DNA from: Sphingobium sp. HWE2-09 | Lineage (GTDB): Bacteria > Pseudomonadota > Alphaproteobacteria > Sphingomonadales > Sphingomonadaceae | Length of the DNA: 64,000 bases | NCBI RefSeq assembly: GCF_035989265.1 | Contig: NZ_JAYKZX010000001.1 | Span: forward strand, 558,001-622,000 | Reading direction: 5' to 3' | Shown here: positions 13,112 through 59,171 of the stretch, in pieces | Layout of the letters: each line of letters begins with the position of its first letter | Position numbering within the stretch: position 1 is the first letter of the stretch | Notes under the pieces: generated by a model | Databases searched by the model: none | What the model was told of the DNA's origin: nothing | What the model saw: the letters and a program-made list of their open reading frames with translations, nothing else | Program-made: the position numbers and the translations under genes

Positions 13112-16100
13112 TCACGCGCGCCGCACCTCAACCCAATGTGTTCCACCCATACCCGACAGCGTCGCCGCCTCACCAACGCGCTTCACTTGGCTGACCGCAG
13201 AACTGCTGATCGTGTCTTCGGCGCCGGCGGACACGACAAGTTCGAAAGCCATGCCCGGTGGGACGGTTGCTTTGATGCGACTGCCCGTCGCCAATGGCCG
13301 GGCATCCACGCGGATCGGACCGCGCACGCTGTCATAACGGCAGGCAACCCGCCCGATCCGGGCATCCAGGAGCGGCGCGATGCGGATTTGCCCAAAACCC
13401 GGGGCGAGCGGTTCGATGCCGGCAAGATGGCGATACAGGAACGCACTAACGGCGCCAAAAGCATAGTGATTGTAGGAATTCATCGCGACATCGCCGGTAT
13501 CGCCATTCCAGCGTTCCCACATCGTCGTCGCGCCTTTGCGGATCATATAGCCCCAGGACGGGAAGTCGGTGCGCATCAGCAGCTCGCACGCAAGAGCCCC
13601 GTGCCCACTGCGCGCCAGTGCTGGAAGCGCGAGCGGCGTCCCAAGGAAGCCAGTGCTGAGCGCAGTGCCGCGTCTGCGGATATCAGCGGCCAGCTTGGCG
13701 GCTGCCGCCTTCCGCAGCGCCGCAGGGATAAGGTCGAGCGCCAGCGCCAGGATATAGCTCGACTGGCTACCATTGCCGACGGTGCCGTCCGCCTGGACGA
13801 ACCGTCGTACAAACGCCGCCTTGATCTGCGTATGCTGCGCCTGCAGGGCTGCTACTTCACCGCTCCGCCCGGTCCATTGGGCCATCGCTTGCAATTGATC
13901 GACTGAACGCGCAAGCATGGCGGTGGCAACGAGCGGCTTGGGCGTCGTCTCGTCCGCTGGGGACTTAGCATCAACTGACAGCCAGTCACCGAAATCGGCA
14001 CCCCGTCCGTTGAGCCAAAGTCCATCAGGATTTCGCTGCAGCACGCCATCAACGTAGCGGCGCATCGCGACCCAGTTTTCGTCGACCACGGTCCGGTCGC
14101 CATAATGAAGGTAGGCCGTGAACGGCAACATCACGCCGGCGTCGGACCAGCCGGGCGTCGATTGCGGCGGCCCGAAACCGCCGCTTTTCGGCAGCGGCGC
14201 CCATAGCGGATAGTTGCCGACCGGGCCCTGAGCGGCACGCACTTCGCGCAACCATTCACGCGTGAACGCGCCGACATCCATATTGAAGGCTGCGGTGTCC
14301 CAAAAGATCTGGGCATCGCCGAGCCAACCCAGACGCTCGTCGCGTTGAGGGCAATCGGTCGGCACGCCAACGAAGTTCGACCGCTGGCTCCACAGGGTGT
14401 TGAGCCAGATCTTCTGCACGATCGGCTGTTCGGCGCTGAAGGTACCGGTCTCGTCGAGCGCCGAATTCATCACTAGGCCACGCACCATCGCGGGCGTCAT
14501 TACGTCGACGCCGCTCACTTCGACATAGCGAAACCCTTGGTAGGAAAAGCGTGGCTCGAGCGTCGCATCAGCCGGTGCGTTGGCGTAGCGGTCCTCGGCA
14601 CGCGCCGCGCGCAGGTTGCGCCGGTCGATCCGTCCTCCAACGTCCAGTAATTCAGCATAGCGCACGCGCACCTGCTTCGCGGCGGTGCCAAGCTTGAGAC
14701 GCGCGCGGCCGGCGAAGTTCTGGCCGAAATCTACGATGTGTAGCTTGTCGCCCGCCTTGCGAACGGTCAGCGGCGTAAGTTCACGTGTGACCCGCACTGG
14801 CGGCACGGTACGCGCGATAAGCGGTGCAAGCACTTCAGGCGCGCGCCAGGCCTTTATCCAGTCGCCATCATCGAATCCGGGCAGGGCCCAGCCCTGTTGC
14901 GCCTCGGCAAAGTCCCAATCTTCGCCGCCATACATCTCGGCATAGCTGACCGGCGCATGTGCCGATCGCCACTGCTCGTCTGACACGATTGCAACACGAT
15001 CGTCGGCGCTTGCCGCTTCCAGCTGGACGCGCACGCGGCGGGGCGCGGGTCCGAAGCTATAGCGCCCGACCGGGGCCATGTAGCTGGCATACCAGCCATC
15101 GGCGACGACGAGGCCGATGACATTCTCGCCCGCATGCAGCGACGCTCCGATATCATGCACCCGATACGGCACATGCGCGGTGAAGTCGGACTGTTCGGCC
15201 AGCATCGCGGTTTCATCGATGCACTGCCCGTTGACCCACAATTCATACGCGCCCAAAGCGGCAATATAGATGCGCGCTCGATCCGGCTTGACCGGCAATT
15301 CGAAGCGCCGCCGCAGCAGACGCGCCGCCGTCGCGGGCCAAGGAAATATTGGCTGTGGGTCAGCGACTTCGGCGAGATTCCACCCAGCCATAGTGGTAGT
15401 GGTATCGCTGCGGCCGGCCGCAGGATCGGTCAAACTGCCCCACCCGCTCGCGATACGCTTTACCGAGTGGCCGACCTCGACCCGCACCTGCGCCGCGACC
15501 GCAACCTTCGGCTTCACGAAATAGCCGGGTGCTGCGAGGATCTCTGCGGTCAACACATGGCGACCGGCAGTAACGGGCACGCGGACGCGCACGGCAGGTG
15601 CGGTGCCAAAGGCGAAGGCGTTGTAGGGCGGCAGGTCGATCGGTTTGCCATCGAGCTGAAGCGAGCGAAGTACGCCGTCGATTGCGACCGTGACCAGGGC
15701 TGACCCCACCCCGCTGTCAAACGGAAGGCCGAACAAATGCGGCTTATCAGGGGCCGCCACGCCTGCCACCCATTGCGGTTCGGCGGCACGATCGTCCCGC
15801 TCAGCCTCACTTTCGGCCGCGATCCATTGCGCTGTCCAGTCTGCCGGATCGAGCAGTGCCATCTCCCACCGCGCCGGCGCGCTCACCACGCGTCGCCCTC
15901 CGGCCCCGCGCCCCTCGACCTGCCAGACGCATCGCTGTCGCGAGCCGAGCGGACGCCCGCTGTAGGCAACGACGCGCAGTGCGCTGTCTTTCATCCACCC
16001 CGAGTCCCACAGAGCGGCGCCCCCGGTGGCCAGCGCGTCGGCGTCGGACGCGACCCTGACGCGGAATGCCTCGAGTTCGGTGCCGGCAACCTGCCAGCTC

Positions 16101-16309
16101 AACATGGGATTGGCATCCGTCAACCCCAGTGGGTTGGTCAGCTGGGCCGAACGTAGCCCGTCGATTGATGCGGATGGGGTCGCTGCGAACCCCGAACCGG
16201 TGCTGGCGGCGACTGCGCCAGCGGCACCGGCACCGGCAGCGCCGATGAAGCCGCGACGAGAGATTGCACCCGCTGCGACCGATTCTGGCAGATGGCGGTC
16301 ATACGCCAT
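13112..16309 (-). CDS. alpha-L-rhamnosidase, glycoside hydrolase family 78, Tat-exported
   Basis: Hydrolyses terminal alpha-L-rhamnosyl residues, for example from flavonoid rutinosides or plant polysaccharides. The 1065-residue protein starts with a Tat-type signal: SRRGFIGAAGAGAAGAVAAS near residues 17-36. Bacterial rhamnosidase N-terminal and concanavalin-like domains follow, with YELWVNGQCIDETAM and ENVIGLVVADGWYASYM typical of GH78. The (alpha/alpha)6 catalytic domain contains TDCPQRDERLGWLGDAQIFW, where the acidic residues supply the general acid, and TTMWERWNGDTGD. The frame is intact. GGAGGAG precedes the ATG. A 10-bp palindrome lies about 70 bp upstream. The next genes upstream (GH43, DoxX-like) are decayed, so this is the survivor of a saccharolytic set. 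Confidence 0.95.
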   Translation of the reverse strand: MAYDRHLPESVAAGAISRRGFIGAAGAGAAGAVAASTGSGFAATPSASIDGLRSAQLTNPLGLTDANPMLSWQVAGTELEAFRVRVASDADALATGGAALWDSGWMKDSALRVVAYSGRPLGSRQRCVWQVEGRGAGGRRVVSAPARWEMALLDPADWTAQWIAAESEAERDDRAAEPQWVAGVAAPDKPHLFGLPFDSGVGSALVTVAIDGVLRSLQLDGKPIDLPPYNAFAFGTAPAVRVRVPVTAGRHVLTAEILAAPGYFVKPKVAVAAQVRVEVGHSVKRIASGWGSLTDPAAGRSDTTTTMAGWNLAEVADPQPIFPWPATAARLLRRRFELPVKPDRARIYIAALGAYELWVNGQCIDETAMLAEQSDFTAHVPYRVHDIGASLHAGENVIGLVVADGWYASYMAPVGRYSFGPAPRRVRVQLEAASADDRVAIVSDEQWRSAHAPVSYAEMYGGEDWDFAEAQQGWALPGFDDGDWIKAWRAPEVLAPLIARTVPPVRVTRELTPLTVRKAGDKLHIVDFGQNFAGRARLKLGTAAKQVRVRYAELLDVGGRIDRRNLRAARAEDRYANAPADATLEPRFSYQGFRYVEVSGVDVMTPAMVRGLVMNSALDETGTFSAEQPIVQKIWLNTLWSQRSNFVGVPTDCPQRDERLGWLGDAQIFWDTAAFNMDVGAFTREWLREVRAAQGPVGNYPLWAPLPKSGGFGPPQSTPGWSDAGVMLPFTAYLHYGDRTVVDENWVAMRRYVDGVLQRNPDGLWLNGRGADFGDWLSVDAKSPADETTPKPLVATAMLARSVDQLQAMAQWTGRSGEVAALQAQHTQIKAAFVRRFVQADGTVGNGSQSSYILALALDLIPAALRKAAAAKLAADIRRRGTALSTGFLGTPLALPALARSGHGALACELLMRTDFPSWGYMIRKGATTMWERWNGDTGDVAMNSYNHYAFGAVSAFLYRHLAGIEPLAPGFGQIRIAPLLDARIGRVACRYDSVRGPIRVDARPLATGSRIKATVPPGMAFELVVSAGAEDTISSSAVSQVKRVGEAATLSGMGGTHWVEVRRA

Positions 16310-18332: not shown

Positions 18333-19409
18333 TCACCATTCAGTGATGAACGGCCCATAGGTCCAGTTGCGACCGCCGGTATCTTCCGCGACGATCGGGT
18401 TGCGCTGGCGACCAAGATAGGTGACTTCGCCTTCCATAATATCACCCGGCCGCAGCCAGCGGTTGCCGTGTGACGCCGCATTGCCCGGGGGCGAGCCGGT
18501 CATTAGCAGGTCACCCGGGACCAGTCGGACGCGCTCCGAAGCATAGGAGAGAATCTGCTCCGGCGAGAAGATCATGTCCGTCACCGGCCAGTCCTGCATG
18601 ACGTTGCCGTTCAGTTTTAGGCGAATCTGCATCTTTTTTAGGTCAACGAACGGTTTCGGTACGATGAATGGACCCAGTGGCCGGAAATTCGGCTGATTCT
18701 TGCTCACCCAATCAAACTCGAAGCGTACGTCGGCCCGACGGAATTCATCCACCGTCCCCATGTCGTTAACCGCGACATAACCAGCGATAAGGTCGCTCGC
18801 ATCCTTCGGCTTGACGTAGCGGCCGGTGCGGCCCACAATAACGCCGAGTTCCATTTCCCAGTCAGGATGATCACCGATTAGGGGCAAGGAGACGGTGTCG
18901 TTCGCACCACAAAGCGCCGAGTGGAGGCCGGTCCAGAAAAACGGCATTCCTTCGCGTCCGCGGCGGTCCACCTCGACCATGTTACGGTCGAAGAAATCCT
19001 GATCGCTTTCCCCGTCTTGGCGCTTGCCCTGGTTGAACTTGTTGAACGTCATCATTTCGGCAACGTGCATCCGGTAATTGGATCCGGCGCCCAGCACATT
19101 GGGATGCGCGACCGGCGGCAGACATTCTACTGCCTCGAACCGAATTCCGCTATCTCCGCCCCTGGCGGAGATGTCGTGCAAAAGGTCAAAGGCGCGGTCC
19201 CAGTCGTTTAACAGTGCATGGGTGTCGAGGTAGAGATGAGAAAGGTCGAACATCGTCCCGTCCGGCTGGACGAGGCCGGGAAAGACCAGGCTGTTTGCCC
19301 GGTAGGTGCCAAAGCCGAAGCTGCCCTTGACCAGTCCGGTGGTGGCGTCGACATCCTCTGGTTCAGATGCAGGAGGCAGTTTGAGGTTAAGCGAAATAGG
19401 CGTCGACAT
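18333..19409 (-). CDS. fumarylacetoacetate hydrolase (FAH) family protein
   Basis: The family hydrolyses C-C bonds of beta-diketones or decarboxylates or isomerises ring-cleavage products, with a divalent metal. The fold signature is PNVLGAGSNYRMHVAEM, then DWEMELGVIVGRTGRYV (metal-binding Glu pair), VAVNDMGTVDEF, LGPFIVP, and LVPGDLLMTGSPPGNA. The open frame extends to 19586, but ATG at 19409 begins the recognisable protein (MSTPISLNLKLPPAS) and overlaps the end of the preceding VOC gene by 23 bp, implying one transcript and translational coupling. Pairing with a ring-cleavage-type VOC protein suggests it processes the cleavage product. It is related to the FAH at 25165-26142. Confidence 0.9.
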   Translation of the reverse strand: MSTPISLNLKLPPASEPEDVDATTGLVKGSFGFGTYRANSLVFPGLVQPDGTMFDLSHLYLDTHALLNDWDRAFDLLHDISARGGDSGIRFEAVECLPPVAHPNVLGAGSNYRMHVAEMMTFNKFNQGKRQDGESDQDFFDRNMVEVDRRGREGMPFFWTGLHSALCGANDTVSLPLIGDHPDWEMELGVIVGRTGRYVKPKDASDLIAGYVAVNDMGTVDEFRRADVRFEFDWVSKNQPNFRPLGPFIVPKPFVDLKKMQIRLKLNGNVMQDWPVTDMIFSPEQILSYASERVRLVPGDLLMTGSPPGNAASHGNRWLRPGDIMEGEVTYLGRQRNPIVAEDTGGRNWTYGPFITEW

Positions 19410-20313
19410 GGCGGTCGCTCCATAAATCCATCGATGCGTCGGCGATCGAATGCGACGTGGTCGGGATCGACGCGTTACAAAGATCAGTGTCGGAAAAGGT
19501 TTCGAAACGATAGCCGCTGGGGTCGCGCCATACATCGAACACATGGCTGCCCAGCGGATGGCGGCCCACGCCCCAGACCGATTCATGCTGTTTATGCGTC
19601 ATCCAGCGATGACCCATAAACTGGGTTTCGGGGTTCGGCACTTCAAACGAGACATGGTGCAGATCGCTCTTGCCCATCGCGAAGAAGGCGATCGTATGAT
19701 GATCCACCCACTCGTCGCCGCGATCAATTCGGTAGAAACCGCCAATGATATTCTGGGGAGCACCGGCGTAGAGCAGATCACTTGGTATAAGGCGCAACGT
19801 CTCGCGATACCATTTGTCACATGCCGCCCAATCCCTGATGAATAGGCCGACATGTCCCAGCCGCATCAATGGCGGCGCCCCGAGCGGCGGCTTGTGCTGC
19901 CATACGCCGCGCCGCTCCTTTTGCGCGCCCTGATTATGCGTCATCAGCGGCGGCAGCGGATCAGCCTCCCGCGTTTCCATACCCGTCACCAAACGGATGC
20001 TGTTTCCTTCGGGGTCCATGAGGGTGATCGCCCGGCCCTTGCCCGGCCCGCCAAGCGGCACAAAGGACTGGCCGTGACGAATCTCCAACTCGGACAAATC
20101 AGCGTCGTCATCCAGTTCGAACGCCAGTGCCGCCAACTGTGATTTCGCCGCTTCCTCCAGGACAAGCTGATAGACCGCCGACCCACTCCCGTGTAGATAG
20201 ACAAGGCCGTTCTCTTCGCCCGCCGACGTCAAGCCGAAATCCTGCGTAAATGCCAATGTGCCGGCCAGATCGCGTACTTTCAGATGAAGATGGTGCAAAC
20301 CCTTCAATCGCAT
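19387..20313 (-). CDS. VOC-superfamily extradiol dioxygenase-like protein
   Basis: Two tandem vicinal-oxygen-chelate modules in 308 residues, the architecture of type I extradiol dioxygenases such as catechol 2,3-dioxygenases. Likely metal ligands in the C-terminal module are His in RLGHVGLFIRD, His in SDLHHVSFEVP, and Glu in YRFETFSDT. These enzymes open catechol rings with Fe(II) or Mn(II). AAGGAG lies just before the ATG. The gene heads an operon with the FAH gene and is divergent from a LysR gene across an 88-bp spacer with a TCCAATC motif. A second VOC protein at 27747 shares the SVWGxGRHxxxSxVF segment. True dioxygenase activity is inferred, not shown. Confidence 0.85.
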   Translation of the reverse strand: MRLKGLHHLHLKVRDLAGTLAFTQDFGLTSAGEENGLVYLHGSGSAVYQLVLEEAAKSQLAALAFELDDDADLSELEIRHGQSFVPLGGPGKGRAITLMDPEGNSIRLVTGMETREADPLPPLMTHNQGAQKERRGVWQHKPPLGAPPLMRLGHVGLFIRDWAACDKWYRETLRLIPSDLLYAGAPQNIIGGFYRIDRGDEWVDHHTIAFFAMGKSDLHHVSFEVPNPETQFMGHRWMTHKQHESVWGVGRHPLGSHVFDVWRDPSGYRFETFSDTDLCNASIPTTSHSIADASMDLWSDRHVDAYFA

Positions 20314-20356
20314 AATGCTCTCCTTCTAGGAGTATTGTGATCCGCCAATCCATCAG

Positions 20357-20390
20357 CGTCCAATCATTAGCTTGCTTGTATCCTATCAGC
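20357..20390. promoter_or_regulatory. candidate LysR operator, site A of four
   Basis: CGTCCAATCATTAG at 20357-20370 is followed by CCTATCAGC at 20382-20390, in the spacer between the divergent VOC and LysR genes. The same core recurs at 24889, 26611 and 27680. Confidence 0.55.
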
Positions 20391-20401
20391 GAACCGGATA
20401 A

Positions 20402-21334
20402 GTGGAGGGTGTGCGTTACGATCGTCTCGACCTGAATCTTCTGGCAGCGCTGGATGTGCTGATTGAAACGCGGAGCGTCTCCGAGGCTGCCCGGCGGCTT
20501 AATCTCAGCCAGCCCGCCGTCACCGGCGCGCTCAACCGACTGCGCGACTTTTTCAAGGACGACCTGTTGGTGCTGAACGGTAGGCAGATGCTGCTGACAC
20601 ACCGTGCAGAGGAACTGGCCGAACCAGTTCGGCGCTCGCTGATGCTGATCCGCGCAGAGATTACCCGTCCAGGCGGCTTTGATCCTGCGACCAGTCAGCG
20701 GCGCTTCGCCATCGTCGCGTCGGATTATGCGTTCACCGTCGTGTTGGCGGATATCGTTAAAAAAGTGGCGCAGGTCGCCCCCCATATTTCGTTCGAGATC
20801 ATTCCTCCAGGCAGCCAGTCGTCGGATCGGTTAGAACGCGCGGAGATCGACCTGCTTTTCACGGTGGAACCCCTCATCTTGCCGCACCAACCGTCCCGCG
20901 CGCTCTGGCGGGACGACGAGGTGGTGATCAGTTGGGAGGGCGCAGGCTATCCCGGCATCATCGACATGGATGATTTCTACCGCGCCGGCTATGCTGTTAC
21001 CCTGTTTGGGTCGGACCGCCGCCCCACTTTGACCGACGCGCATTTGCAAAAAGCCCACCCGGGCGAAGCGCCTGCGCTGCTTCTTCCCAATTTTTCCGCC
21101 CTGCCCCTAGCGATCGCCGGAACGGGGCGTATGGCGATAATGCATCGCCTGTTCGCCGAGCATTTCGCACTCGCCCATCCAATCCGGCTGCACCAGCCAA
21201 GCCTAGCGCTGCCCGAGATTGTGGAGGTGGTGCAATGGAACCATGTGCGGGAACGCGATCCGGGCATTCGATGGCTGCTGGAGGCGATCCAGGCGCAGGT
21301 CAATCTGCTTCCGACGCGCACACATATCGGGTGA
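20402..21334 (+). CDS. LysR-family transcriptional regulator, copy 1
   Basis: An N-terminal winged helix-turn-helix (RLDLNLLAALDVLIE, SVSEAARRLNLSQPAVTGALN, RLRDFFKDDLLV) is joined to a periplasmic-binding-protein-like effector domain, 310 residues in all. It starts with GTG at 20402. GTG at 20411 also fits, because the paralogue at 26748 begins at the equivalent of this position (MRFERLDLN), but GGAGGG lies too close to it. The regulator is of the NodD/PcpR-like short-linker type seen in sphingomonad catabolic clusters. It is divergent from the VOC/FAH operon and probably controls that operon and itself through the TCCAATC sites. The paralogue shares most of the HTH. Confidence 0.93.
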   Translation: MEGVRYDRLDLNLLAALDVLIETRSVSEAARRLNLSQPAVTGALNRLRDFFKDDLLVLNGRQMLLTHRAEELAEPVRRSLMLIRAEITRPGGFDPATSQRRFAIVASDYAFTVVLADIVKKVAQVAPHISFEIIPPGSQSSDRLERAEIDLLFTVEPLILPHQPSRALWRDDEVVISWEGAGYPGIIDMDDFYRAGYAVTLFGSDRRPTLTDAHLQKAHPGEAPALLLPNFSALPLAIAGTGRMAIMHRLFAEHFALAHPIRLHQPSLALPEIVEVVQWNHVRERDPGIRWLLEAIQAQVNLLPTRTHIG

Positions 21335-26610: not shown

Positions 26611-26656
26611 CGTCCAATCGGTAGATGCTTGCGCAGCCATTGCTGCGCCTTATAGC
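26611..26656. promoter_or_regulatory. candidate LysR operator, site C of four, with a nested hairpin
   Basis: CGTCCAATCGGTAG at 26611-26624 and CCTTATAGC at 26648-26656 flank a perfect inverted repeat, gcgcagc (26631-26637) and gctgcgc (26642-26648). It lies between the divergent NTF2-like and LysR genes. The extra 12 bp relative to sites A and B coincide with the hairpin. Confidence 0.55.
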
Positions 26657-26747
26657 TGCCTTAGGCCGGAACGATCGCGACAAAAGCCGCGACGTCGCCC
26701 ATAGCCCATGCGCAGCGTGGACGAACTTAGGAAAGGAACGCGGTCGA

Positions 26748-27671
26748 ATGCGATTTGAAAGGCTGGACCTTAATCTGCTGGTGGCACTGGACGCATTGAT
26801 CGAGTATCGTAGCGTATCGACGTCCGCCAAGCGCCTTTTCCTGAGCCAGCCCGCCGTCAGTGGCTCGCTCAACCGCCTGCGCGATTTTTTTGGCGACGAT
26901 CTGCTGGTGCAGGTGGGCCGCCAGATGATGTTGACCCCTAAAGCGGAAGAACTGCGCGCGCCGGTGCGCGAAGCGCTGATGCTGATCCGGGCCAAGATCA
27001 CCACGCCGCGCGAATTCGATCCGACGACCGCTAGGCGCCATTTTACCATCATCGCATCGGACTATGTCTATAATGTGCTGCTGACCGACGTCTTCGCACA
27101 AGCCGCCCTACGCTCGCCGCATCTTGCCTTCGACGTGCTCAGCACCGGCAAGCGCGGCACCGAGATGATGGAACAAGGGGAAGCGGACATCCTCATCACG
27201 ATTCCGCAATTCCATACGGACGATCATCCTCGCGTCGCGCTGTTCGAAGATAAGCATGCGGTCGTCGCTTGGCGGGACGGACATTATGGTGCGCGAATGA
27301 CCCACGACGATTTTTACGAGGCCCACCACGCCGTAGTCCTGTTTGGACGAGATCGTCATCCCGCCTTTTCCGAAACCTTCTTTGAACAGCGGGGCATGAC
27401 GCGCAACATTCAGCTGCGCGTGCCGACCTTTTCCGCCCTTGCCCCCGCGGTGCTCGGAACCGATCGCATCGCCACAATGTATGACCGCCACGCTCAATGG
27501 TTTGCGCGCTTTCTGCCGCTGACGGTCCATCGCCCGCCAATCGACATGCCTGATGTGGTCGAAGAACTGCAATGGCACAGTCTGCGCAACAGCGATCAGG
27601 GTCTACAATGGCTGATCGCGCTTATTCGCGAATGCGCTGCCAACCTTGCTCCGCTAAAAAACGGCTTATAG
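26748..27671 (+). CDS. LysR-family transcriptional regulator, copy 2
   Basis: A 307-residue regulator with wHTH MRFERLDLNLLVALDALIE, SVSTSAKRLFLSQPAVSGSL, NRLRDFFGDDLLVQVGRQMM and a C-terminal effector-binding domain. The frame opens at 26625. ATG at 26748 is chosen because AGGAAAGGAA precedes it and the homology with copy 1 begins there. It stands between the divergent NTF2-like/FAH unit and the downstream VOC-enolase operon and is the obvious regulator of both. The DNA-recognition helix is nearly the same as that of copy 1 (LSQPAVxGxLNRLRDFF), which fits a shared operator. Confidence 0.94.
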   Translation: MRFERLDLNLLVALDALIEYRSVSTSAKRLFLSQPAVSGSLNRLRDFFGDDLLVQVGRQMMLTPKAEELRAPVREALMLIRAKITTPREFDPTTARRHFTIIASDYVYNVLLTDVFAQAALRSPHLAFDVLSTGKRGTEMMEQGEADILITIPQFHTDDHPRVALFEDKHAVVAWRDGHYGARMTHDDFYEAHHAVVLFGRDRHPAFSETFFEQRGMTRNIQLRVPTFSALAPAVLGTDRIATMYDRHAQWFARFLPLTVHRPPIDMPDVVEELQWHSLRNSDQGLQWLIALIRECAANLAPLKNGL

Positions 27672-27746: not shown

Positions 27747-28847
27747 ATGACAGGCATCAATGGGGTCGAATTGGTAATTTACGGCGTCGAAAATCTGGAC
27801 GAGTGCGTGAGCTACTTCGTCGATTTCGGGTTGCCGCTGATCGAACGCGACGGCGGCCAAGCTTTGTTCGAAATGGAGGAAGGATCGAGCGTCATCATCC
27901 GCCCGCTGGCCGACGCGGTTTTACCCGGACAAAGGCTCGAGGGCTATGGCGTCCAGCAGGTGATCTGGGGCGTGCCCAATCAAAAATATTTCGACCGCAT
28001 CGTGGCACGGTTGCGCAAGACGACCGACGTGACGATCGACGCCGATGGCACCGGGCGCTTCTTCGATTGCGACGGCATCGCGAGCGGAATCCGCATCTAT
28101 GACCGGCGCAAGATCTGGGGCGCGCCCGATCCGGTCAACAGCTATGACAACGTCAATCGTATCAACACGCACCGTAAATGGCGGCTCAAGGCCAACCCCA
28201 AGACGATCCAGCATGTCGTGTTCCAGGTACCCGATCCCAATGCCAGCTGGGAATGGTATCGCGACAATCTGGATTTCCGGCTGTCCGACGTGCAGCAAGG
28301 TTTCGGCGTATTCGCCCGCGCGCCCGGCACCAATGACCATCACAGCATCTATTGGTTGAAGGCCGACCTGCCCTTCCCCGGCTTGGACGGCAAGACGCGG
28401 TTTAATCACGTCAATTATGGTGTGGAAGATATCGACGAGGTGATGGTCGGCGCCAATTATATGGAGCGCAAGGGCTGGCAGAAGTCGGTATGGGGGCTGG
28501 GCCGCCACCGCATCGCCAGTTCGGTGTTCATGTACCTGCCCTGCCCCGCTGGCGGCGACGCGGAATATGGCACGGACAGCGACGTGCTGGACGACAGCTG
28601 GGTGCCGCGTACCTGGAATTCGCGGTTCGGCACGATGAGCTTCATGCACAATCTTCAGCCCTGGATATTCGACGAAGCGCCATGGGAAGTCGGCTATGTC
28701 GATGGATTGACGCCCAAGGCGGTAAAGCCGCATCCCAGCCAGCCGGCCGTGGTCGAGGCATCGCCAGCGGACGCGGCGGGGGCGCTCCACAATCCGACGC
28801 ATAAGGAGGCGCATCACGACGCCGACAACGATCAGGCGGCTGAGTAA
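27747..28847 (+). CDS. VOC-superfamily dioxygenase-like protein, operon head
   Basis: 366 residues with two VOC modules. The N-terminal one starts INGVELVIYGVENLDECVSY and the C-terminal one starts IQHVVFQVPDPNASWEWYRD. Candidate ligands are His in IQHVVF, His in RFNHVNYGVED, and Glu in AEYGTDSD. SVWGLGRHRIASSVF matches the equivalent segment of the first VOC protein. A long low-complexity tail after about residue 330 is rich in His, Ala and Asp (HNPTHKEAHHDADN). AGGAG precedes the ATG. The next gene starts 6 bp after the stop, so this heads a four-gene operon. By family it is a ring-cleaving dioxygenase or a glyoxalase-type isomerase. Confidence 0.85.
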   Translation: MTGINGVELVIYGVENLDECVSYFVDFGLPLIERDGGQALFEMEEGSSVIIRPLADAVLPGQRLEGYGVQQVIWGVPNQKYFDRIVARLRKTTDVTIDADGTGRFFDCDGIASGIRIYDRRKIWGAPDPVNSYDNVNRINTHRKWRLKANPKTIQHVVFQVPDPNASWEWYRDNLDFRLSDVQQGFGVFARAPGTNDHHSIYWLKADLPFPGLDGKTRFNHVNYGVEDIDEVMVGANYMERKGWQKSVWGLGRHRIASSVFMYLPCPAGGDAEYGTDSDVLDDSWVPRTWNSRFGTMSFMHNLQPWIFDEAPWEVGYVDGLTPKAVKPHPSQPAVVEASPADAAGALHNPTHKEAHHDADNDQAAE

Positions 28848-28853
28848 GGCGCG

Positions 28854-29807
28854 ATGGCGACAGTCGTTCAGACCGACTATGCCTGGCCCGACGTCAGCAT
28901 AGAGCGTATAGTCATTGAGAGAGCGGGACACCGGCTGGTCGTGGGGCCAGCAGTCCCCGCCAGCGCGGCGGAGATCGAGGCGCTGGTCGCGCAGCATGAT
29001 CCGCAGGCGATCATGGCCTGCTGGGCGCAGGTCAGCGGCGCGGCGATCGCTGCGCCCGCGAACCTCAAGATAGTACAGCGGATCGGCGTCGGCCTCGACA
29101 ATATCGACGTCGCCGCCGCCACCGCGCGCGGCGCATTCGTCGCCAATGTACCCGACTATTGCGTGGACGAGGTGTCGGCGCACGCCGTCGGTTTCGTGCT
29201 GGACTGGGCGCGCGGGATCACAGCGTTCGACCGCGATGTGAAGCGCGGGGCATGGAACCCGGCGGCGGCGGTGCTGCGGCGCGTTGCCGACCTGACCGTC
29301 GGCATCGTGGGCTATGGGCGGATTGGCACGATGACCGGCACGCGACTGCGCGCCTTTGGATGCCGCGTGCTGACCAACAGTCTGGGCGGCAGCGGCACCG
29401 ATCATCGCGAATTACCTGACCTGTTGAGCGAGAGCGACGTGGTGATCGTCCACGCGCCGCTGCTGCCCGACACGCATCACTTGATCGACGCGGACGCGAT
29501 CGCGCGGATGCGAGACGGCGCGTTTCTCGTGAATGTCAGCCGCGGCCCCCTGATCGACACGCAAGCGTTGATCGCCGCGCTAGAGACGGGCAAGCTGTCT
29601 GGCGCGGGCCTCGACGTGGTCGAGGGCGAGCCCGAACCGCCACGCGCGCTGGTCGAGCGTCCTGACGTGATCGTGACGCCGCATATCGCCTTTTCCTCCG
29701 GCGCATCGCTTGACGAACTGCGCCGCCGCTCGGCTGAGGAAGTCGTGCGCGCGCTGGCTGGCGAGCCGCTACATTTCCCCTGCAATCAACCAAAGGCACT
29801 GTCTTGA
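28854..29807 (+). CDS. D-2-hydroxyacid dehydrogenase (phosphoglycerate dehydrogenase-like)
   Basis: Interconverts a 2-oxoacid and a D-2-hydroxyacid with NAD(P). The 317-residue protein has the family's split catalytic and Rossmann domains: IVQRIGVGLDNIDVAAATAR, VGIVGYGRIGTMTGTRL (GxGxxG near residue 160), FLVNVSRGPLIDTQALI with catalytic Arg, Glu in the VVEGEPEPP segment, and catalytic His in VIVTPHIAFSSGAS. Its stop overlaps the start of the enolase-like gene (TTGA), so the two are translationally coupled. Close relatives act on glyoxylate, hydroxypyruvate or aryl-pyruvates. The neighbouring enolase-like and kinase genes suggest a glycerate-type product. Confidence 0.9.
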   Translation: MATVVQTDYAWPDVSIERIVIERAGHRLVVGPAVPASAAEIEALVAQHDPQAIMACWAQVSGAAIAAPANLKIVQRIGVGLDNIDVAAATARGAFVANVPDYCVDEVSAHAVGFVLDWARGITAFDRDVKRGAWNPAAAVLRRVADLTVGIVGYGRIGTMTGTRLRAFGCRVLTNSLGGSGTDHRELPDLLSESDVVIVHAPLLPDTHHLIDADAIARMRDGAFLVNVSRGPLIDTQALIAALETGKLSGAGLDVVEGEPEPPRALVERPDVIVTPHIAFSSGASLDELRRRSAEEVVRALAGEPLHFPCNQPKALS

Positions 29808-31096
29808 CCTCCCCTATCATCACCCATGTCCATGGCCGCCAGATCCTCGACAGCCGCGGCCGTCCAACCGTCGAAGCCGAAATCACTTTGTCGGACGGCA
29901 CGGTCGCGCGCGCGTCAGTGCCATCGGGCGCGTCGACCGGCAAGGCAGAGTCCGTCGAGCTGCGCGATGGCGGCGCGGCCTGGGGCGGCAAGGCGGTGGG
30001 CCGCGCCGTCGGGAACATCAACGATCGCGTGGCGAGCGCCGTCGCGGGTCTTAGCGCATTCGATCAGGGTGCGCTCGACGCGCGGCTGGTCGAGGTGGAC
30101 GGGACCGACAATTTCGGCGGGATTGGCGCGAATGCGGCGCTGGCGGTCAGCTTGGCAACGCTGCGGGCCGGTGCGCTGGCGCAGCGCCTGCCGCTCTATC
30201 GCTGGATCGCGACGCTGATCGGGGTGAAGCCGACCATGCCGCTGCCCATGGTCAACATCCTGTCGGGCGGGCTTCACGCCGGGCGCGGGATGGACGTGCA
30301 GGATTTTCTGGCGATGCCGGTGGGCGCGGCCAATTACAGCGAGGCGCTGGAATGGATCTGCCGCATCCGCACCACCGCGACCGAGCTATGCGCGGCGCAG
30401 GGCCTGCCGGTGCTGCTCGCCGACGAAGGCGGGCTGTCGCCGGGCTTCGAACGATCCGAAGAGGCGCTCGACATGATGGTCGCCGCGATTGAGGCGGCGG
30501 GGCTGACGCCGGGCAAGGATGTCGGCATCGTGCTCGACATCGCTTCCTCCTCACTGGTCGATGCCAACGGCGGCTATCGTTTCGAGCGGCTGGGCGAGAC
30601 GTTCGACGCCGCGCAGATGATCGACATGCAGGCGGCGTGGATTGAACGCTATCCTATCATCTCGATCGAAGACGGTCTGGGCGAGGACGACTGGGCGGCG
30701 TGGCCCGCACTGACCGAGCGGCTCGGCCATATTCAGCTGGTCGGCGATGATCTCTTTGCGACCCAGCCTGCCCGCGTGCAGCGGGGTATCGATAGCGGCG
30801 GCGGCAACGCCGCGCTCATCAAGGTCAATCAGAACGGCACCGTATCGGGGACGTTCGACGCGATCCGCACGGCCCGCGGGGGCGGTTTCGCGACGGTTAT
30901 TTCGGCGCGATCGGGCGAGACCGAGGACGACTTCCTAGCCGATCTGGCGGTTGGCGTTGCGGGCGGGCAGATCAAGGTCGGATCGGTGCGCAATTCGGAG
31001 CGGCTGGCCAAGTATAACCAACTGCTGCGCATTGAGGAAGCGGGCCTGCCCTGGGCCGGCGCTTCAGGCGTCGCACCCCTTGGAGTAAAGGCATGA
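29804..31096 (+). CDS. enolase-like protein with altered active site
   Basis: 430 residues covering both enolase domains. The metal ligands Asp245, Glu289 and Asp315/316 (LDIASSS, SIEDG, VGDD) and the catalytic pair Glu208 (DEGG) and Lys340 (LIKVNQ) are kept. The flexible loop PSGASTGK and Lys403 (LAKYNQLLRIEE) are also kept. Two conserved residues that contact the leaving group differ: His of the usual SHRSGET is Ala368 (SARSGETED) and Glu of QEF is Asp167 (VQDF). It starts with TTG, overlapping the dehydrogenase stop, and its own stop overlaps the kinase start (ATGA). Ordinary enolase makes PEP from 2-phosphoglycerate. The changes and the operon suggest a specialised paralogue acting on a related phosphorylated hydroxyacid. 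Confidence 0.88.
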   Translation: MTSPIITHVHGRQILDSRGRPTVEAEITLSDGTVARASVPSGASTGKAESVELRDGGAAWGGKAVGRAVGNINDRVASAVAGLSAFDQGALDARLVEVDGTDNFGGIGANAALAVSLATLRAGALAQRLPLYRWIATLIGVKPTMPLPMVNILSGGLHAGRGMDVQDFLAMPVGAANYSEALEWICRIRTTATELCAAQGLPVLLADEGGLSPGFERSEEALDMMVAAIEAAGLTPGKDVGIVLDIASSSLVDANGGYRFERLGETFDAAQMIDMQAAWIERYPIISIEDGLGEDDWAAWPALTERLGHIQLVGDDLFATQPARVQRGIDSGGGNAALIKVNQNGTVSGTFDAIRTARGGGFATVISARSGETEDDFLADLAVGVAGGQIKVGSVRNSERLAKYNQLLRIEEAGLPWAGASGVAPLGVKA

Positions 31097-32079
31097 TAGC
31101 CGACGCGGCGATGCTGGCCTTCGCGCGCGCTAACGACCTGCTGGGCGCGGACGAGGATGGCGCGTGGGTGCCGCTGACCGGCGGCGTGTCGTCCGACATC
31201 TGGCATCTCGCCTCCAGCCGGGGCGAGGTGTGCATAAAGCGGGCGCTGGCGCAGCTGAAGGTCGCGGCGACCTGGGAAGCGCCGGTCGACCGCAATGCCT
31301 ATGAATGGGCCTATATGCAGGTGGCCGATGCCATCGCGCCGAACGCCGTGCCGCGCCCGGTCGCGCAGGACGAGGCGCTGGGCCTGTTCGCGATGGCATG
31401 GCTCGCACCAGACCAGCATATATTGTGGAAGAGCGAATTGCTGGCCCGGCGCGCCGATCCCGCCTTTGCGGCGCAGGTGGGTATGCTGATCGGCCGCATT
31501 CACGCCGGAACCGCGCGCAACCCGGCGATCCCCGACGCCTTCGCCACCGACGGTAATTTCCATGCGCTGCGGATCGAACCCTATCTGCTCGCCACCGCCG
31601 CCGCGCATCCCGACCTGGCGCCTGTCATCGGGGCGGCCGCCGATGCACTGGCGAACACGCATCTGGCGCTGGTACATGGCGATGTCAGCCCAAAGAATCT
31701 GCTGGTCGGCCCGGCTGGTCCGGTGCTGCTCGACGCCGAATGCGCCTGGTACGGCGATCCGGCGTTCGACCTCGCCTTCTGCCTCAACCATCTGGCGATC
31801 AAGGCGCGGGTTGTGGACGGCACGCGCGATGCGCTGCTGGCGTCCTTCGATGCGCTGGCCGCTGCCTATATAGCGCGAGTGGATTGGGAAGCGCCCGCCG
31901 ATCTTGAAACACGCGCGGCGCGATTGCTGCCGATGCTGGCGCTCGCCCGCGTCGATGGCAAGTCACCGCTCGAATATCTTGATGAGGCGCATCGGGGCGC
32001 ACTACGTCAGGCCGCCCGCGCTGCGATACAGGCCGCGCCGCAGACGCTCGCCGCGGCGCGCGACCTGATCGTCAGCTGA
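31093..32079 (+). CDS. APH-family small-molecule kinase
   Basis: 328 residues of the aminoglycoside phosphotransferase/choline kinase fold. Signatures are VPLTGGVSSDIWHLAS (nucleotide loop), VCIKRALAQL (ATP-binding Lys), LALVHGDVSPKNLLV (catalytic loop, HGDxxxxN), and VLLDAECAWYGDPAFDLAF (metal-binding Asp). Such kinases phosphorylate hydroxyl groups of sugars, amino alcohols or hydroxyacids. The ATG overlaps the enolase-like stop by 4 bp. Position in the operon suggests it makes the phosphorylated substrate for the enolase-like step, as glycerate 2-kinase does in the serine cycle. Antibiotic resistance is a less likely reading. The 3' end overlaps the convergent amidohydrolase gene by 8 bp. 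Confidence 0.85.
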   Translation: MIADAAMLAFARANDLLGADEDGAWVPLTGGVSSDIWHLASSRGEVCIKRALAQLKVAATWEAPVDRNAYEWAYMQVADAIAPNAVPRPVAQDEALGLFAMAWLAPDQHILWKSELLARRADPAFAAQVGMLIGRIHAGTARNPAIPDAFATDGNFHALRIEPYLLATAAAHPDLAPVIGAAADALANTHLALVHGDVSPKNLLVGPAGPVLLDAECAWYGDPAFDLAFCLNHLAIKARVVDGTRDALLASFDALAAAYIARVDWEAPADLETRAARLLPMLALARVDGKSPLEYLDEAHRGALRQAARAAIQAAPQTLAAARDLIVS

Positions 32080-36370: not shown

Positions 36371-37426
36371 CTAGTCCTGCAACAGCGTTGCGCGCAATGC
36401 GTCCATGTCGATGGTGCGCCGTTCCCGCGCGCTGGCCAGCCCCGCGTCGAGCACCGCCATGACCATGAGCGCCTGGGCGGCCGGCACCGGGTTGGAGCCT
36501 TCGCCCCGCACCGCCTGCGCCAGAGCACGCCAGAACGCGCCATAGTCGCCGCGCTGGTTGGGAATGGAGACGGGCGAAGCGCCGTCTGTCGCGGCGGTGT
36601 ATTTGCCTTCGACGGGATCGATACCCAGATCTGGATGTCCCAGCCCCTTTCCTGCAAGGATGGCCGGCTCCTGCATGTCGAGGCCCTGCTTGATCCAGCT
36701 GCCGCCTGTGCCGTGGACCATGAAGCGAAGGCCATGATCGGCAGCAAGCTTGCTGGAATGAAGCACGGCGCGGCAGCTGTCATAGTGCAGCACGACATGA
36801 AACCAGTCCAGCGCGGGCGCGCTGTCGCGCAGCGTGGCGAAATCGGCGGTCACTGCCTGTGGCATGCCGAACAGTTGCAGGGCCTGATCGACCAGATGCG
36901 GACCCAGATCGAACCAGGAACCGCCCGCCCGGGCTTCCTTCCACACAGCTGGCGCCTGCGGACGCCAGCGATCGAAATGGCTTTCGAAATGGACGATGCG
37001 GCCAAGTTGCCCGTCGTCGATCATCCCACGCAGCGTCAGGAAATCCGCGTCCCAGCGTCGGTTCTGAAAGATGGTGAGCAGTACGCCCGCCGCGTCTGCC
37101 CCAGACGCGACCGCCCCGGCGTCGGCAAGGCTGGTGGCGAACGGCTTGTCGACCAGCACATGCTTGCCCGCAGCGATCGCCGCGAGCGCATGAGGGGCGT
37201 GCAGTTCGTCAGGACTGCACACGATCACCAGATCGATATCGTCCCGCGCCAGCAGTGTATCGACATCCGGCGCGACTGCGACGTTGGGATGATGGGCAAG
37301 CACCTCGGCCGCGTCACGCGAGACGATGGCGCGCAGGGCCATGCCCGGCGTCGCCTGCACGAATGGCGCGTGGAATACCCGACCGCCCAGACCATAGCCG
37401 ATCAGGCCGACACCGATCTCCGTCAT
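36371..37426 (-). CDS. Gfo/Idh/MocA-family oxidoreductase
   Basis: 351 residues with an N-terminal Rossmann fold (IGVGLIGYGLGGRVFHAPF), VDKPFATSLADAGA (the catalytic Lys-Pro motif, usually EKP), and a C-terminal alpha/beta domain with FESHFDRWRP and GGSWFDLGPHLVDQAL. These NAD(P)-dependent enzymes oxidise sugars, sugar acids or inositols, and some start beta-elimination-type deglycosylation through 3-keto sugars. The start overlaps the GH3 stop by 4 bp, so it is coupled to a glycosidase. This fits oxidation of a released or bound sugar. Confidence 0.9.
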   Translation of the reverse strand: MTEIGVGLIGYGLGGRVFHAPFVQATPGMALRAIVSRDAAEVLAHHPNVAVAPDVDTLLARDDIDLVIVCSPDELHAPHALAAIAAGKHVLVDKPFATSLADAGAVASGADAAGVLLTIFQNRRWDADFLTLRGMIDDGQLGRIVHFESHFDRWRPQAPAVWKEARAGGSWFDLGPHLVDQALQLFGMPQAVTADFATLRDSAPALDWFHVVLHYDSCRAVLHSSKLAADHGLRFMVHGTGGSWIKQGLDMQEPAILAGKGLGHPDLGIDPVEGKYTAATDGASPVSIPNQRGDYGAFWRALAQAVRGEGSNPVPAAQALMVMAVLDAGLASARERRTIDMDALRATLLQD

Positions 37427-39759
37427 CGCTTGCCCTTCCCGCCAAAGCCGCGGCCAAAGCCATAGGGATAGAGCGCCCCGTCGCGCGTGTCGGCATAACC
37501 GGGCGCGTCGGGATGCTGGCGCAGCACCGATTCCCGGGTTGCGGGCAAGGCGAAGGGCAGTCGCGCCTCCGGTGCGGCCTTGCCGGTGATGATGTCGAAC
37601 TGTGCCCGGTCGCTGGCGCCGAACGTCGCGAGCAACGCTCCGGCATTTCGAACGCGGCTTTCCTTGTCGAGAACGTAGGGATTGCGGAAATAGATGGAGA
37701 TGACGGCCTTGGCAGGATCACCCGCTTCGCGCATCGCCGCCTGGATGTCCGGCAGCGACGGGGTCATCTTCCAGCTCTGCGCTTTTGCGAGGTCTGATAG
37801 CGTGACGATATTGACTTCCCACGGGAAACCGCCACCGAAGATCAGGCCGCTGTCGAGGCAGCCGTCGGGCGTTTCGAACGCGCCGGGGGCGCCTGGATCA
37901 TAGACGCAGGGGTCTTGCGCGCCCCAGGTCGCCTGACGTTTCCCGGTGCGCGGGTCCATGATATTGAATTCCGGCCCGATCGCTCGACCACCGGTGTCCG
38001 GCGATTTGGGCGAATAGGCGCGCGCACCGGTAGGATTGACCATGACCTTTATCAGCAGCGCATCAATGTCCCCAGGAACCGGCGGCCGTTCCTTCGTATT
38101 GCCGTCGGTAACATTCAGCCCCGACGCCCGCGCAGCGTCCGCGCCAAATCCCATCACATAGACTTTTGCGCCCGCCTTGAGCGGCAACAGCGCATTGCGG
38201 TTCTCCAGAAGCACGATCGAGCGGCGCTGAACGTCCAGACCCGTTGCCCGATCGTCCGGCCGGCCGATGTTGTCCGCCGCTTTGGGCGCGTCGACATAGG
38301 GGTTTTCGAACAGGCCAAGCTGGAACTGTTCGGTCAGCAGGCGGCGGACCGCCGGGTCGATCTGGGTCGCTTCGCCGAGCCGTCCCGCCTGTACGAGATT
38401 GGTGAGCATTCTGGCGTCGGTGAATTCCGACAGAATGTCCGTGCCGCTGCGGATCGCAACGACGACCCGGTCGGCGATGTCATAGGGCTTGCCGGTTTCC
38501 GGATTGGTGCGATAGCTTTCCAGCCCCCAGCCGCGCTGTTCGATGATGCCGCTATCAGAATTGACATAGCCTTTGAAGTCTAGCTTCGCACGGAGCAGGT
38601 CGGTCACGACCTGTTTGGAGAAGGCCATGCCGCGCTGGTCGTATGTAACGCCTTCATAGGTCAAGTTTATCGGCACGCCATAATAGGGCATGATCGACGA
38701 CGCCCCCTTCGCGATCGCCGTGCGGAAGGGTTTGAGATGATAGGCAAAGCCATATTTGCCCCAACTGTCGGTGTATACCTGACGCTTTCCGAAGGTATAA
38801 TGCGGGTCTAGGCCCATTTCCTGCGGGCCGCCGCCGGGGAAATGCTTGATCGACAACGCGATCGACGAGGCGGGCGACAGTGACGTGCCGTCGGCACGCA
38901 CCGGACCCTGCAACCCGCCGATCAGCGTCCCGACAATGTCGGACATGAGATCGGCATTCTCCGTGAAGGTTTCATGGAAGCGCGACCAGCGCGGCTCGGT
39001 ACCGAGATCGGCCATATAGCCATACATGCCGCGCAGGCCGATAGCGCGCCATTCGCGGCCCATCACATCGGTCAGGCTGCGCAGCGGGGCCATATCCGCC
39101 CTGATGCGCGCGGGCACCATCCCGCGCGCGTTGACCGGCGCGCCGGCGCCCAGCGCCGCCGCCGCCAGACCCGCTTCCTTGGGAAATTCGGTGAAAGCTC
39201 CCGCGCCCGCCCCGATGCCGAAGGTCGGGTTCGTTTCTACGTGGTTTCGGGCATTGTCCTTGAACAAACCGGGGATGCCGAGCCGTCCCGTTTCCAGCCG
39301 TTCCTGCACCGCATTGGTGAACTTCGCCATCTGATCGGGCGTCTGCGGGTAGCCCGCATAGAGCGCGAAGCCGGTCAGCTTCACCTTGCAATCTGCTGGT
39401 GCGGTCATGACCTTGGCGCGCAAGATGAAGCGGGTGAGTTTCTGATTGTCGATAAGGTCTCGGCCGCGCGGCGTGATCGTCCCGTCGCAATCGGGATTAT
39501 TGGTCGCAATCATCATCATACCGACCTTTTCCGCCAGTGTCATCCGCCCGACCAGATCGGTCGCACGCTGCTGCGCGGACAGGCGCCAGTCCTCATAAGG
39601 ATCGAGCCGACCGTTTGTGTTCAGATCTCTGAAGCGCAAGCCGTCCATCTCTATGATCGACTTGGACCGCGTGCCAAGCACCGGCTGCGGTGGTGGCGCC
39701 GACTGTGCGCCAGACAGCGCGAAGCCTGCGAGCAGAAAGAACATAAGTCGACGCATCAT
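37423..39759 (-). CDS. glycoside hydrolase family 3 beta-glucosidase
   Basis: 778 residues with an N-terminal signal peptide (MRRLMFFLLAGFALSGAQS). The GH3 N-terminal barrel begins DLVGRMTLAEKVGMMM and includes SIALSIKHFPGGGPQEMG (KHF substrate loop) and the nucleophile segment GYVNSDSGIIEQRGWGLES. The C-terminal alpha/beta sandwich holds VLLENRNALLPLKAG. GH3 enzymes release beta-linked glucose or xylose from oligosaccharides or aglycones, here probably in the periplasm. It leads the Gfo/Idh gene (4-bp overlap) and lies 150 bp from the TonB receptor, from which a terminator separates it. Confidence 0.93.
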   Translation of the reverse strand: MMRRLMFFLLAGFALSGAQSAPPPQPVLGTRSKSIIEMDGLRFRDLNTNGRLDPYEDWRLSAQQRATDLVGRMTLAEKVGMMMIATNNPDCDGTITPRGRDLIDNQKLTRFILRAKVMTAPADCKVKLTGFALYAGYPQTPDQMAKFTNAVQERLETGRLGIPGLFKDNARNHVETNPTFGIGAGAGAFTEFPKEAGLAAAALGAGAPVNARGMVPARIRADMAPLRSLTDVMGREWRAIGLRGMYGYMADLGTEPRWSRFHETFTENADLMSDIVGTLIGGLQGPVRADGTSLSPASSIALSIKHFPGGGPQEMGLDPHYTFGKRQVYTDSWGKYGFAYHLKPFRTAIAKGASSIMPYYGVPINLTYEGVTYDQRGMAFSKQVVTDLLRAKLDFKGYVNSDSGIIEQRGWGLESYRTNPETGKPYDIADRVVVAIRSGTDILSEFTDARMLTNLVQAGRLGEATQIDPAVRRLLTEQFQLGLFENPYVDAPKAADNIGRPDDRATGLDVQRRSIVLLENRNALLPLKAGAKVYVMGFGADAARASGLNVTDGNTKERPPVPGDIDALLIKVMVNPTGARAYSPKSPDTGGRAIGPEFNIMDPRTGKRQATWGAQDPCVYDPGAPGAFETPDGCLDSGLIFGGGFPWEVNIVTLSDLAKAQSWKMTPSLPDIQAAMREAGDPAKAVISIYFRNPYVLDKESRVRNAGALLATFGASDRAQFDIITGKAAPEARLPFALPATRESVLRQHPDAPGYADTRDGALYPYGFGRGFGGKGKR

Positions 39760-47521: not shown

Positions 47522-47598
47522 GGTCACTTCCTCTCTCTAAAAGTATTAGCCGGGGATTTCCGAGGCACGCCTAAGTCGTGGCCACCCCGGTCGTGCCG

Positions 47599-59134: not shown

Positions 59135-59171
59135 TGAAAAAGATCTGGAAAACCACCATTTTATATAGGCG

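What the first reader, a model, noticed from the sequence alone, without database searches (positions are those of the whole stretch)
28854..32079. Coupled dehydrogenase, altered enolase and APH-kinase: possible new phosphorylated-hydroxyacid pathway
Three genes overlap stop-to-start (TTGA, ATGA): a D-2-hydroxyacid dehydrogenase, an enolase-like protein and an APH-type kinase, behind a VOC dioxygenase-like gene. Known chemistry: hydroxypyruvate reductase, glycerate 2-kinase and enolase convert hydroxypyruvate to PEP. The gene set mirrors this trio, but the kinase is from a different family and the enolase lacks two conserved active-site residues. Inference: a ring-cleavage product is reduced, phosphorylated and dehydrated by a specialised enolase. 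I know of no described aromatic pathway with this trio.
Basis: partly seen in the sequence, partly recalled or inferred. Interest (0 to 1): 0.8.

Follow-up and report, generated by a model that had tools for sequence, protein, structure and literature searches.

The report
Enolase-like operon with altered active site
Bacteria of several phyla carry a small gene module (a kinase, a remodelled cousin of the glycolytic enzyme enolase and often a dehydrogenase) that probably turns an unusual small acid from aromatic or sugar-acid breakdown into the central metabolite PEP, although its enolase is labelled as ordinary enolase.

Summary
VOC, D-2-hydroxyacid dehydrogenase (DH), enolase-like (ENO) and APH kinase genes form a tight operon. 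ENO keeps the metal ligands, Lys345 and Glu211, but Glu168 is Asp and His373 is Ala (yeast numbering). The host has a second, canonical enolase (49% identical).

This is a conserved family. Of 152 loci with this APH kinase (148 distinct), 135 have an enolase within 11 kb and 86 a DH within 4.5 kb. Readable linked enolases, window included, have D168 in 135 of 135 and A373 in 131 of 132. In a 60-row tree they separate from 14 canonical rows at 100/98.

Many loci lie in aromatic- or sugar-acid-type clusters (VOC, FAH, LacI, TRAP/ABC); others do not. PEP carboxylase (Rhizobium, Cupriavidus) or pyruvate kinase (two other lineages) lies nearby in four lineages.

Best reading: a C3-substituted pyruvate is reduced, phosphorylated at O2, and its C3 group eliminated to give PEP. 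The group is probably not the plain OH of 2-phosphoglycerate; methoxy, releasing methanol, is the boldest candidate. No enzyme was assayed. Eight searches of an open-access library found no description.

The parts
28854..29807 (+). D-2-hydroxyacid dehydrogenase (DH), first gene of the trio
   Evidence: PF02826 174.6 bits and PF00389 57 bits; best equivalog PGDH 195.7 bits, cut-off 454
29804..31096 (+). Enolase paralogue (ENO) with E168D and H373A; TTG start overlaps the DH stop
31093..32079 (+). APH-type kinase; ATG overlaps the ENO stop; HGDVSPKN motif
27747..28847 (+). Two-domain VOC protein, likely extradiol-type dioxygenase, 6 bases before DH
   Evidence: PF00903 30.2 bits; H, H, E aligned in 7 of 7; below all dioxygenase equivalog cut-offs
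26625..27671 (+). LysR-family regulator upstream of VOC (start may be further in; L018 relative 54% identical)
   Evidence: PF00126, PF03466
25165..26142 (-). FAH-family hydrolase (FAH1), divergent
   Evidence: PF01557 193.1 bits; 61% in L018
26161..26565 (-). SnoaL-like protein next to FAH1
   Evidence: PF14534; 54% in L018
32072..33136 (-). Amidohydro_2 (ACMSD/LigY-like fold family), converging on APH
   Evidence: PF04909; 78% in L018
33136..34260 (-). FAD-dependent monooxygenase
   Evidence: PF01494; PRK06847 subfamily 420.9 bits, cut-off 372; 64% in L018
34367..35332 (-). Second FAH-family hydrolase (FAH2)
   Evidence: PF01557, PF18288
35331..36221 (-). Cyclase-family protein
   Evidence: PF04199 119.1 bits

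Best explanation
The operon encodes a three-step route from a C3-substituted pyruvate (X-CH2-CO-COO-), released by ring cleavage and hydrolysis or aldol cleavage, to PEP. DH reduces it to (R)-X-lactate; APH phosphorylates the 2-hydroxyl; ENO takes the C2 proton as enolase does (two Mg, Lys345) and expels the C3 group X, giving PEP and HX. Where an FAH hydrolase releases the 2-hydroxyacid directly from a sugar acid, DH is not needed. Shown: gene anatomy, linkage, retained metal, base and phosphate residues, near-invariant E168D and H373A. Inferred: all substrates, the order of steps, PEP as product, and X being other than OH.
For: ENO within 11 kb of APH in 135 of 152 loci, both ENO and DH in 78. 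D168 in 135 of 135, A373 in 131 of 132, G209A in 135 of 135, T397V/I in 131 of 132, against E, H, G, T in 32 of 32 canonical rows, while K345, E211, D246, E295, D320, H159, R374 are kept in every readable row. E168 is one of four listed enolase catalytic residues (table passage of PMC4922564). Host has a canonical enolase. In 46 of 46 module genomes (chosen because they have the linked ENO) a second enolase-family gene scores higher, 372-451 bits against 248-314. PEP-consuming neighbours: PEP carboxylase next to DH-APH in Rhizobium-type loci L015/L173 (one genome), L044, L057, L068, L107, L174 and 9.8 kb away in Cupriavidus L111; pyruvate kinase in L210 (461.6 bits, cut-off 306.4) and near APH in L036/L140. 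FAH within 11 kb in 28 of 152; of 25 loci with FAH and ENO, 19 have DH; of the 6 without DH, the annotated ones L108-L110 carry SDR genes.
Against: No substrate or activity is shown. PEP-enzyme neighbours were picked after seeing them: PEP carboxylase is near the module in only 2 of 46 genomes, both of the Rhizobium type, and a pyruvate kinase query hit no other of the 152 loci than L036/L140. 17 of 152 loci have APH without ENO in the stretch, 11 of these with 18 kb or more of sequence. 57 ENO-linked loci have no DH within 4.5 kb. Some pairs stand among housekeeping-like genes (L023, L041, L058). The role of His373 at the leaving group is recalled, not tested.
Confidence: 0.5

Rival explanations
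1. Plain hydroxypyruvate route: DH is a hydroxypyruvate reductase, APH a D-glycerate 2-kinase of a new family, and ENO a catabolic isoenzyme that still converts 2-phosphoglycerate to PEP despite its changed residues.
For: Same chemistry and probably same product; DH is close to glyoxylate/hydroxypyruvate and phosphoglycerate dehydrogenases. The window's genome has no MOFRL or Gly_kinase glycerate kinase, nor do 16 of the 17 module-bearing genomes of its family that were checked. 2,4-Didehydro-3-deoxy-rhamnonate-hydrolase-like FAH (352.2 bits in L108, 320.9 in L210; cut-off 500) would give glycerate from hexonates.
Against: Changes at E168 and H373 are near-invariant although both are fixed in 32 of 32 canonical rows. 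25 of 29 module genomes outside the family already have a MOFRL glycerate kinase and all 46 a higher-scoring enolase gene, so the route would be redundant. Absence of glycerate kinases in the family is not tied to the module: 23 of 27 genomes of the family without an APH hit also lack MOFRL.
Confidence: 0.25
2. C3-substituted glycerate route: OH still leaves, but the substrate carries a group R on C3 (R-CHOH-CH(OPO3)-COO-), giving a substituted phosphoenolpyruvate.
For: A smaller Asp168 and Ala373 also make room for R; varied contexts could supply varied R.
Against: PEP carboxylase and pyruvate kinase neighbours suit PEP itself; no neighbour class was recognised that would handle a substituted PEP.
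Confidence: 0.15
3. The pair has another role (metabolite repair, regulation or moonlighting) and its presence in catabolic clusters is secondary.
For: Stand-alone APH-ENO pairs in L023, L041, L058; 17 of 152 loci with APH but no ENO in the stretch.
Against: Metal, base and phosphate residues are retained; placement with LysR or LacI regulators and catabolic genes recurs (LacI within 11 kb in 31 of 152).
Confidence: 0.1

Closest known systems
Enolase / phosphopyruvate hydratase (TIGR01060, EC 4.2.1.11)
   Different: E168D and H373A near-invariant; linked to a kinase; paralogous to the host's canonical enolase
Hydroxypyruvate reductase - glycerate 2-kinase - enolase (hydroxypyruvate to PEP)
   Same: Order of chemistry: reduce, phosphorylate at O2, dehydrate
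   Different: Kinase is APH-type, not MOFRL or Gly_kinase; enolase remodelled; encoded as one unit
5-Methylthioribose kinase (TIGR01767) and other APH-fold small-molecule kinases
   Different: 48.7 bits against a cut-off of 275; different operon context
2,4-Didehydro-3-deoxy-L-rhamnonate hydrolase route (NF053535)
   Same: FAH hydrolase of this type beside APH-ENO in Paracoccus L108 (352.2 bits) and in the L210 cluster (320.9 bits)
   Different: Below the equivalog cut-off of 500; here followed by kinase and enolase-like lyase
Bacterial acetovanillone catabolism (PMC9618137)
   Same: Phosphorylation used within an aromatic catabolic pathway (recalled; only the search listing and start of the abstract were seen)
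   Different: Different kinase and chemistry as far as recalled; no enolase

Membership tests
Enolase (phosphopyruvate hydratase) | Two-domain enolase fold over the curated model cut-off | tested here: met
Enolase (phosphopyruvate hydratase) | Metal ligands D246, E295, D320; base K345; acid E211; K396 | tested here: met
   Window and all readable module rows; K396 lost only in L053
Enolase (phosphopyruvate hydratase) | E168 (listed catalytic residue) and H373 | tested here: not met
   D and A in the window; 135 of 135 D, 131 of 132 A in readable module rows; catalytic list from a passage of PMC4922564; role of H373 recalled
Enolase (phosphopyruvate hydratase) | Activity on 2-phosphoglycerate | not testable with these tools
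   Needs an assay
APH phosphotransferase superfamily (PF01636) | Profile over cut-off and catalytic loop HGDxxxxN (motif recalled) | tested here: met
   52.9 bits against 23.2; HGDVSPKN invariant in 20 of 20
Glycerate 2-kinase (MOFRL PF05161, Gly_kinase PF02595) | Membership of a known glycerate kinase family | tested here: not met
   Pfam scan of APH gives PF01636 only; no PF05161 or PF02595 match in the window's genome
D-2-hydroxyacid dehydrogenase | NAD-binding and catalytic domains | tested here: met
   PF02826, PF00389
Type I extradiol dioxygenase | Two-His-one-Glu metal triad | tested here: met
   Aligned in 7 of 7 sequences
Type I extradiol dioxygenase | Match to a named dioxygenase equivalog | tested here: not met
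   Best 43.1 bits (HsaC, cut-off 450); HpaD 37.6 against 321.4
5-Methylthioribose kinase | Equivalog score over cut-off | tested here: not met
   48.7 bits against 275

The most novel reading that the evidence does not exclude
The module enolase is an alcohol-eliminating enolase: O-methylated ring-cleavage products yield 3-methoxypyruvate, which is reduced, phosphorylated at O2 and split by ENO into PEP and methanol, an ether-cleaving step built on glycolytic chemistry. Support is circumstantial: His-to-Ala, Glu-to-Asp and Thr-to-Val/Ile give a larger, less polar pocket; a DesA/LigM-like O-demethylase (389.7 and 377.5 bits, cut-offs 800 and 580) and Rieske proteins, two with a VanA_C domain, lie in the related cluster L018, and a Rieske-like protein in L116; a class III (formaldehyde-detoxifying) alcohol dehydrogenase directly follows APH in L003 (594.3 bits, cut-off 543.95) and L061 but lies near the module in none of 46 genomes (positions compared by eye).
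Probability: 0.2. Interest if true: 0.88.

Novelty: new variant of a known kind. Interest (0 to 1): 0.7.

Why it matters
Enolase is commonly read as a one-function family, so a gene named eno is taken to mean glycolysis. Here a widespread paralogue, well over the curated enolase cut-off and annotated as phosphopyruvate hydratase in the five plasmid regions where the linked gene is annotated, has lost a catalytic glutamate and a histidine in a near-invariant way and travels with a kinase and often a dehydrogenase. If the reading is right it adds an entry of aromatic and sugar-acid carbon at the PEP node, gives a physiological substrate to a large group of kinases named after aminoglycosides, and offers a natural experiment on the leaving-group residues of enolase. 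Three proteins suffice to test it.

Tried and rejected
Large aromatic enolpyruvate as product: set aside, because PEP-consuming genes neighbour the unit in four lineages and the enolase signature is the same in sugar-type contexts. Decayed enolase: rejected; frames and catalytic residues are intact except in L053 (G373, K375, R396; no VOC or FAH match there). Only enolase of the host: rejected. Glycerate-kinase test: 26 of 46 module genomes and 10 of 33 others have MOFRL; it does not discriminate within the window's family and speaks against plain glycerate outside it. Methionine salvage (suggested by the kinase fold): not pursued beyond noting no obvious neighbour. Formaldehyde dehydrogenase link: adjacent only in L003 and L061, about 10 kb away in L018, none of 46 genomes; weak and post hoc. 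Second enolase of congener G1130 (L211): canonical (QEF, SHRSGET), no other query gene matched there, a useful contrast. One search's canonical row was a wrong-frame reading and its S39 column was mis-indexed; both were replaced. L193A, G209A, L285W rest on a narrow canonical set (30 relatives of one order plus two recalled sequences). Chance levels for PEP-enzyme neighbours were not computed. Literature: eight searches on the trio and its chemistry and two on enolase residues; only listings and abstract starts were seen, plus one passage each of PMC4450660 (a reference entry) and PMC4922564 (a table).
Full report
ANATOMY. LysR (to 27671, +) is followed by VOC 27747-28847, DH 28854-29807, ENO 29804-31096 and APH 31093-32079, with overlaps TTGA and ATGA. 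FAH1 and a SnoaL-like gene are divergent; an amidohydrolase, an FAD monooxygenase, FAH2 and a cyclase-family gene lie on the other strand. Alteraurantiacibacter buctensis L018 keeps FAH1, SnoaL, LysR, VOC (78%), DH, ENO, APH, FAD monooxygenase and amidohydrolase (78%), with a DesA/LigM-like demethylase, Rieske proteins and an O-methyltransferase among them.

LINKAGE. By tblastn, an enolase lies within 11 kb in 135 (112 within 1.6 kb on the same strand), a D-2-hydroxyacid DH within 4.5 kb in 86, both in 78. Of the 17 without ENO, six are stretches of 13 kb or less and 11 are 18 kb or more. Frequency: 22 of 397 genomes of the window's family (own included; single sequence, E 1e-60), 38 of 385 of the class and 9 of 398 of the phylum (own included; profile, E 1e-70). 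The kinase and enolase homologue lists share 39 contig lengths (119 entries each, self excluded), which I read as shared contigs. From the enolase side: G1128, same genus, has a D168/A373 enolase (57% identical), which sits in FAH / pyruvate kinase / LacI / DH-APH-ENO-FAH with a diverged APH (39%); the extra enolase of G1130 is canonical and without module genes. In 46 genomes chosen because they carry the linked ENO, all have another enolase-family gene with a higher score.

CONTEXT. (i) Window-type units: the window and L018; L116 with a LigK-type aldolase (PRK09262 255.3 bits, cut-off 179), DHDPS-family proteins, an aldehyde dehydrogenase and Rieske-like proteins; L117 with a DHDPS-family protein, RraA-like protein, FAD monooxygenase and VOC (41% to the window's). 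A second set in the same family (most of L119-L135; L120 and L123 show no ENO or DH) has the other DH subfamily among acyl-CoA ligase, LeuC/LeuD-like, alpha/beta hydrolase and VOC genes; a resemblance to phthalate-pathway genes was seen by eye only. (ii) Streptomyces, Rhizobium, Ramlibacter, Paraburkholderia, Cupriavidus and Rhodococcus share most of: HpaD-like VOC (286 bits in L069, cut-off 321.4), HpaG-like FAH, Zn-alcohol dehydrogenase, CMD, FMN reductase, cupin and LacI. Rhodococcus carries a window-type ENO there while Streptomyces carries the other subclade, so the two subclades look interchangeable. (iii) TRAP transport genes with FAH, APH, ENO and usually DH (L014, L045, L049, L073 without DH match, L161). 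(iv) Paracoccus and Roseibium: LacI, APH-ENO-FAH-SDR and sugar ABC genes without DH; the Paracoccus FAH scores 352.2 bits on 2,4-didehydro-3-deoxy-L-rhamnonate hydrolase (cut-off 500). (v) L023, L041, L058: APH-ENO without DH beside MreB-like genes (label by eye).

PRODUCT. PEP carboxylase lies next to DH-APH in L015/L173, L044, L057, L068, L107 and L174, all Rhizobium-type, and a PEP carboxylase (1245.9 bits, cut-off 815) 9.8 kb from APH in Cupriavidus L111. A pyruvate kinase (461.6 bits, cut-off 306.4) lies in the L210 cluster, and one (57% identical to it) about 3.7 kb from APH in L036/L140. Against this, PEP carboxylase is near the module in only 2 of 46 genomes, both of the Rhizobium type, and the pyruvate kinase query hit no other examined locus. 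These neighbours were noticed first and counted afterwards.

SUBSTRATE. In enolase Lys345 takes the C2 proton and Glu211, with Glu168 and His373 nearby, handles the 3-OH (recalled; E168, E211, K345, K396 are the listed catalytic residues in a table passage of PMC4922564). Module enolases keep the proton, metal and phosphate side and change the leaving-group side. I therefore rank a 2-phospho-3-X-propionate with X other than OH, or a C3-substituted glycerate, above plain 2-phosphoglycerate. Plain glycerate is further disfavoured because 25 of 29 module genomes outside the window's family have a MOFRL glycerate kinase; inside the family 1 of 17 module genomes and 4 of 27 genomes without an APH hit have one, so there the test is silent. 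Ring cleavage beside a methoxy group would give 3-methoxypyruvate (recalled chemistry), which fits the L018 and L116 clusters but not every context.

PRINT. Eight searches of an open-access full-text library by gene names, residues, substrates and pathway words showed no report of this module. Most subscription papers are not in it.

VERDICT. A real, widespread and conserved catabolic module built around an enolase paralogue, undescribed as far as those searches show. My estimate is 0.8 that it is a functional unit with a specialised enolase, 0.5 that the full reduce-phosphorylate-eliminate route to PEP with X other than OH is right, and 0.2 that X is methoxy.

Noticed in passing
window 18333-21334: A second LysR-like / VOC / FAH unit (FAH 18333-19586, VOC-like 19387-20313, LysR-like 20402-21334, the last by eye) resembling the FAH-LysR-VOC arrangement of the finding, without the trio.
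   Followed up: partly
window 13112-16309 and 37423-39759: An alpha-L-rhamnosidase (PF17389) and a gene that looks like a GH3 beta-glucosidase (by eye) flank the region, suggesting plant phenolic glycosides as the source of the aromatic.
   Followed up: partly
window 62661-63539 and 47060-47527: A further FAH-family gene (PF01557 235.3 bits) and a further small VOC gene in the same window.
   Followed up: no
window 6193-7047 and 58778-60796: Frames that look like transposase genes (IS5-like and IS66-like, by eye), so the region may be mobile.
   Followed up: no
L053 2555-4933: Streptomyces sporangiiformans-type locus order but enolase frame with G373, K375, R396 and no VOC or FAH match: perhaps a decaying copy. 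L053 is the Streptomyces himalayensis contig NZ_JACEHE010000003.
   Followed up: partly
L210 1-1758 and L139 12452-15121: Homogentisate-pathway genes near the module: fumarylacetoacetase (530.8 bits, cut-off 375.3, L210) and a homogentisate-dioxygenase-like fragment (66.7% identical between L210 and L139; name by eye).
   Followed up: partly
L023, L041, L058: APH-ENO without DH sits beside MreB-like genes in Deltaproteobacteria-type contigs; its role there is unexplained.
   Followed up: no
L052 3866-4732: A PEP-mutase/methylisocitrate-lyase family gene lies directly before APH-ENO behind TRAP genes (PrpB 250.3 bits, cut-off 354.4).
   Followed up: no
L006, L028, L040, L042 and others: In Betaproteobacteria-type contigs the pair follows genes that look like PdxH and fructose-1,6-bisphosphatase (by eye).
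   Followed up: no
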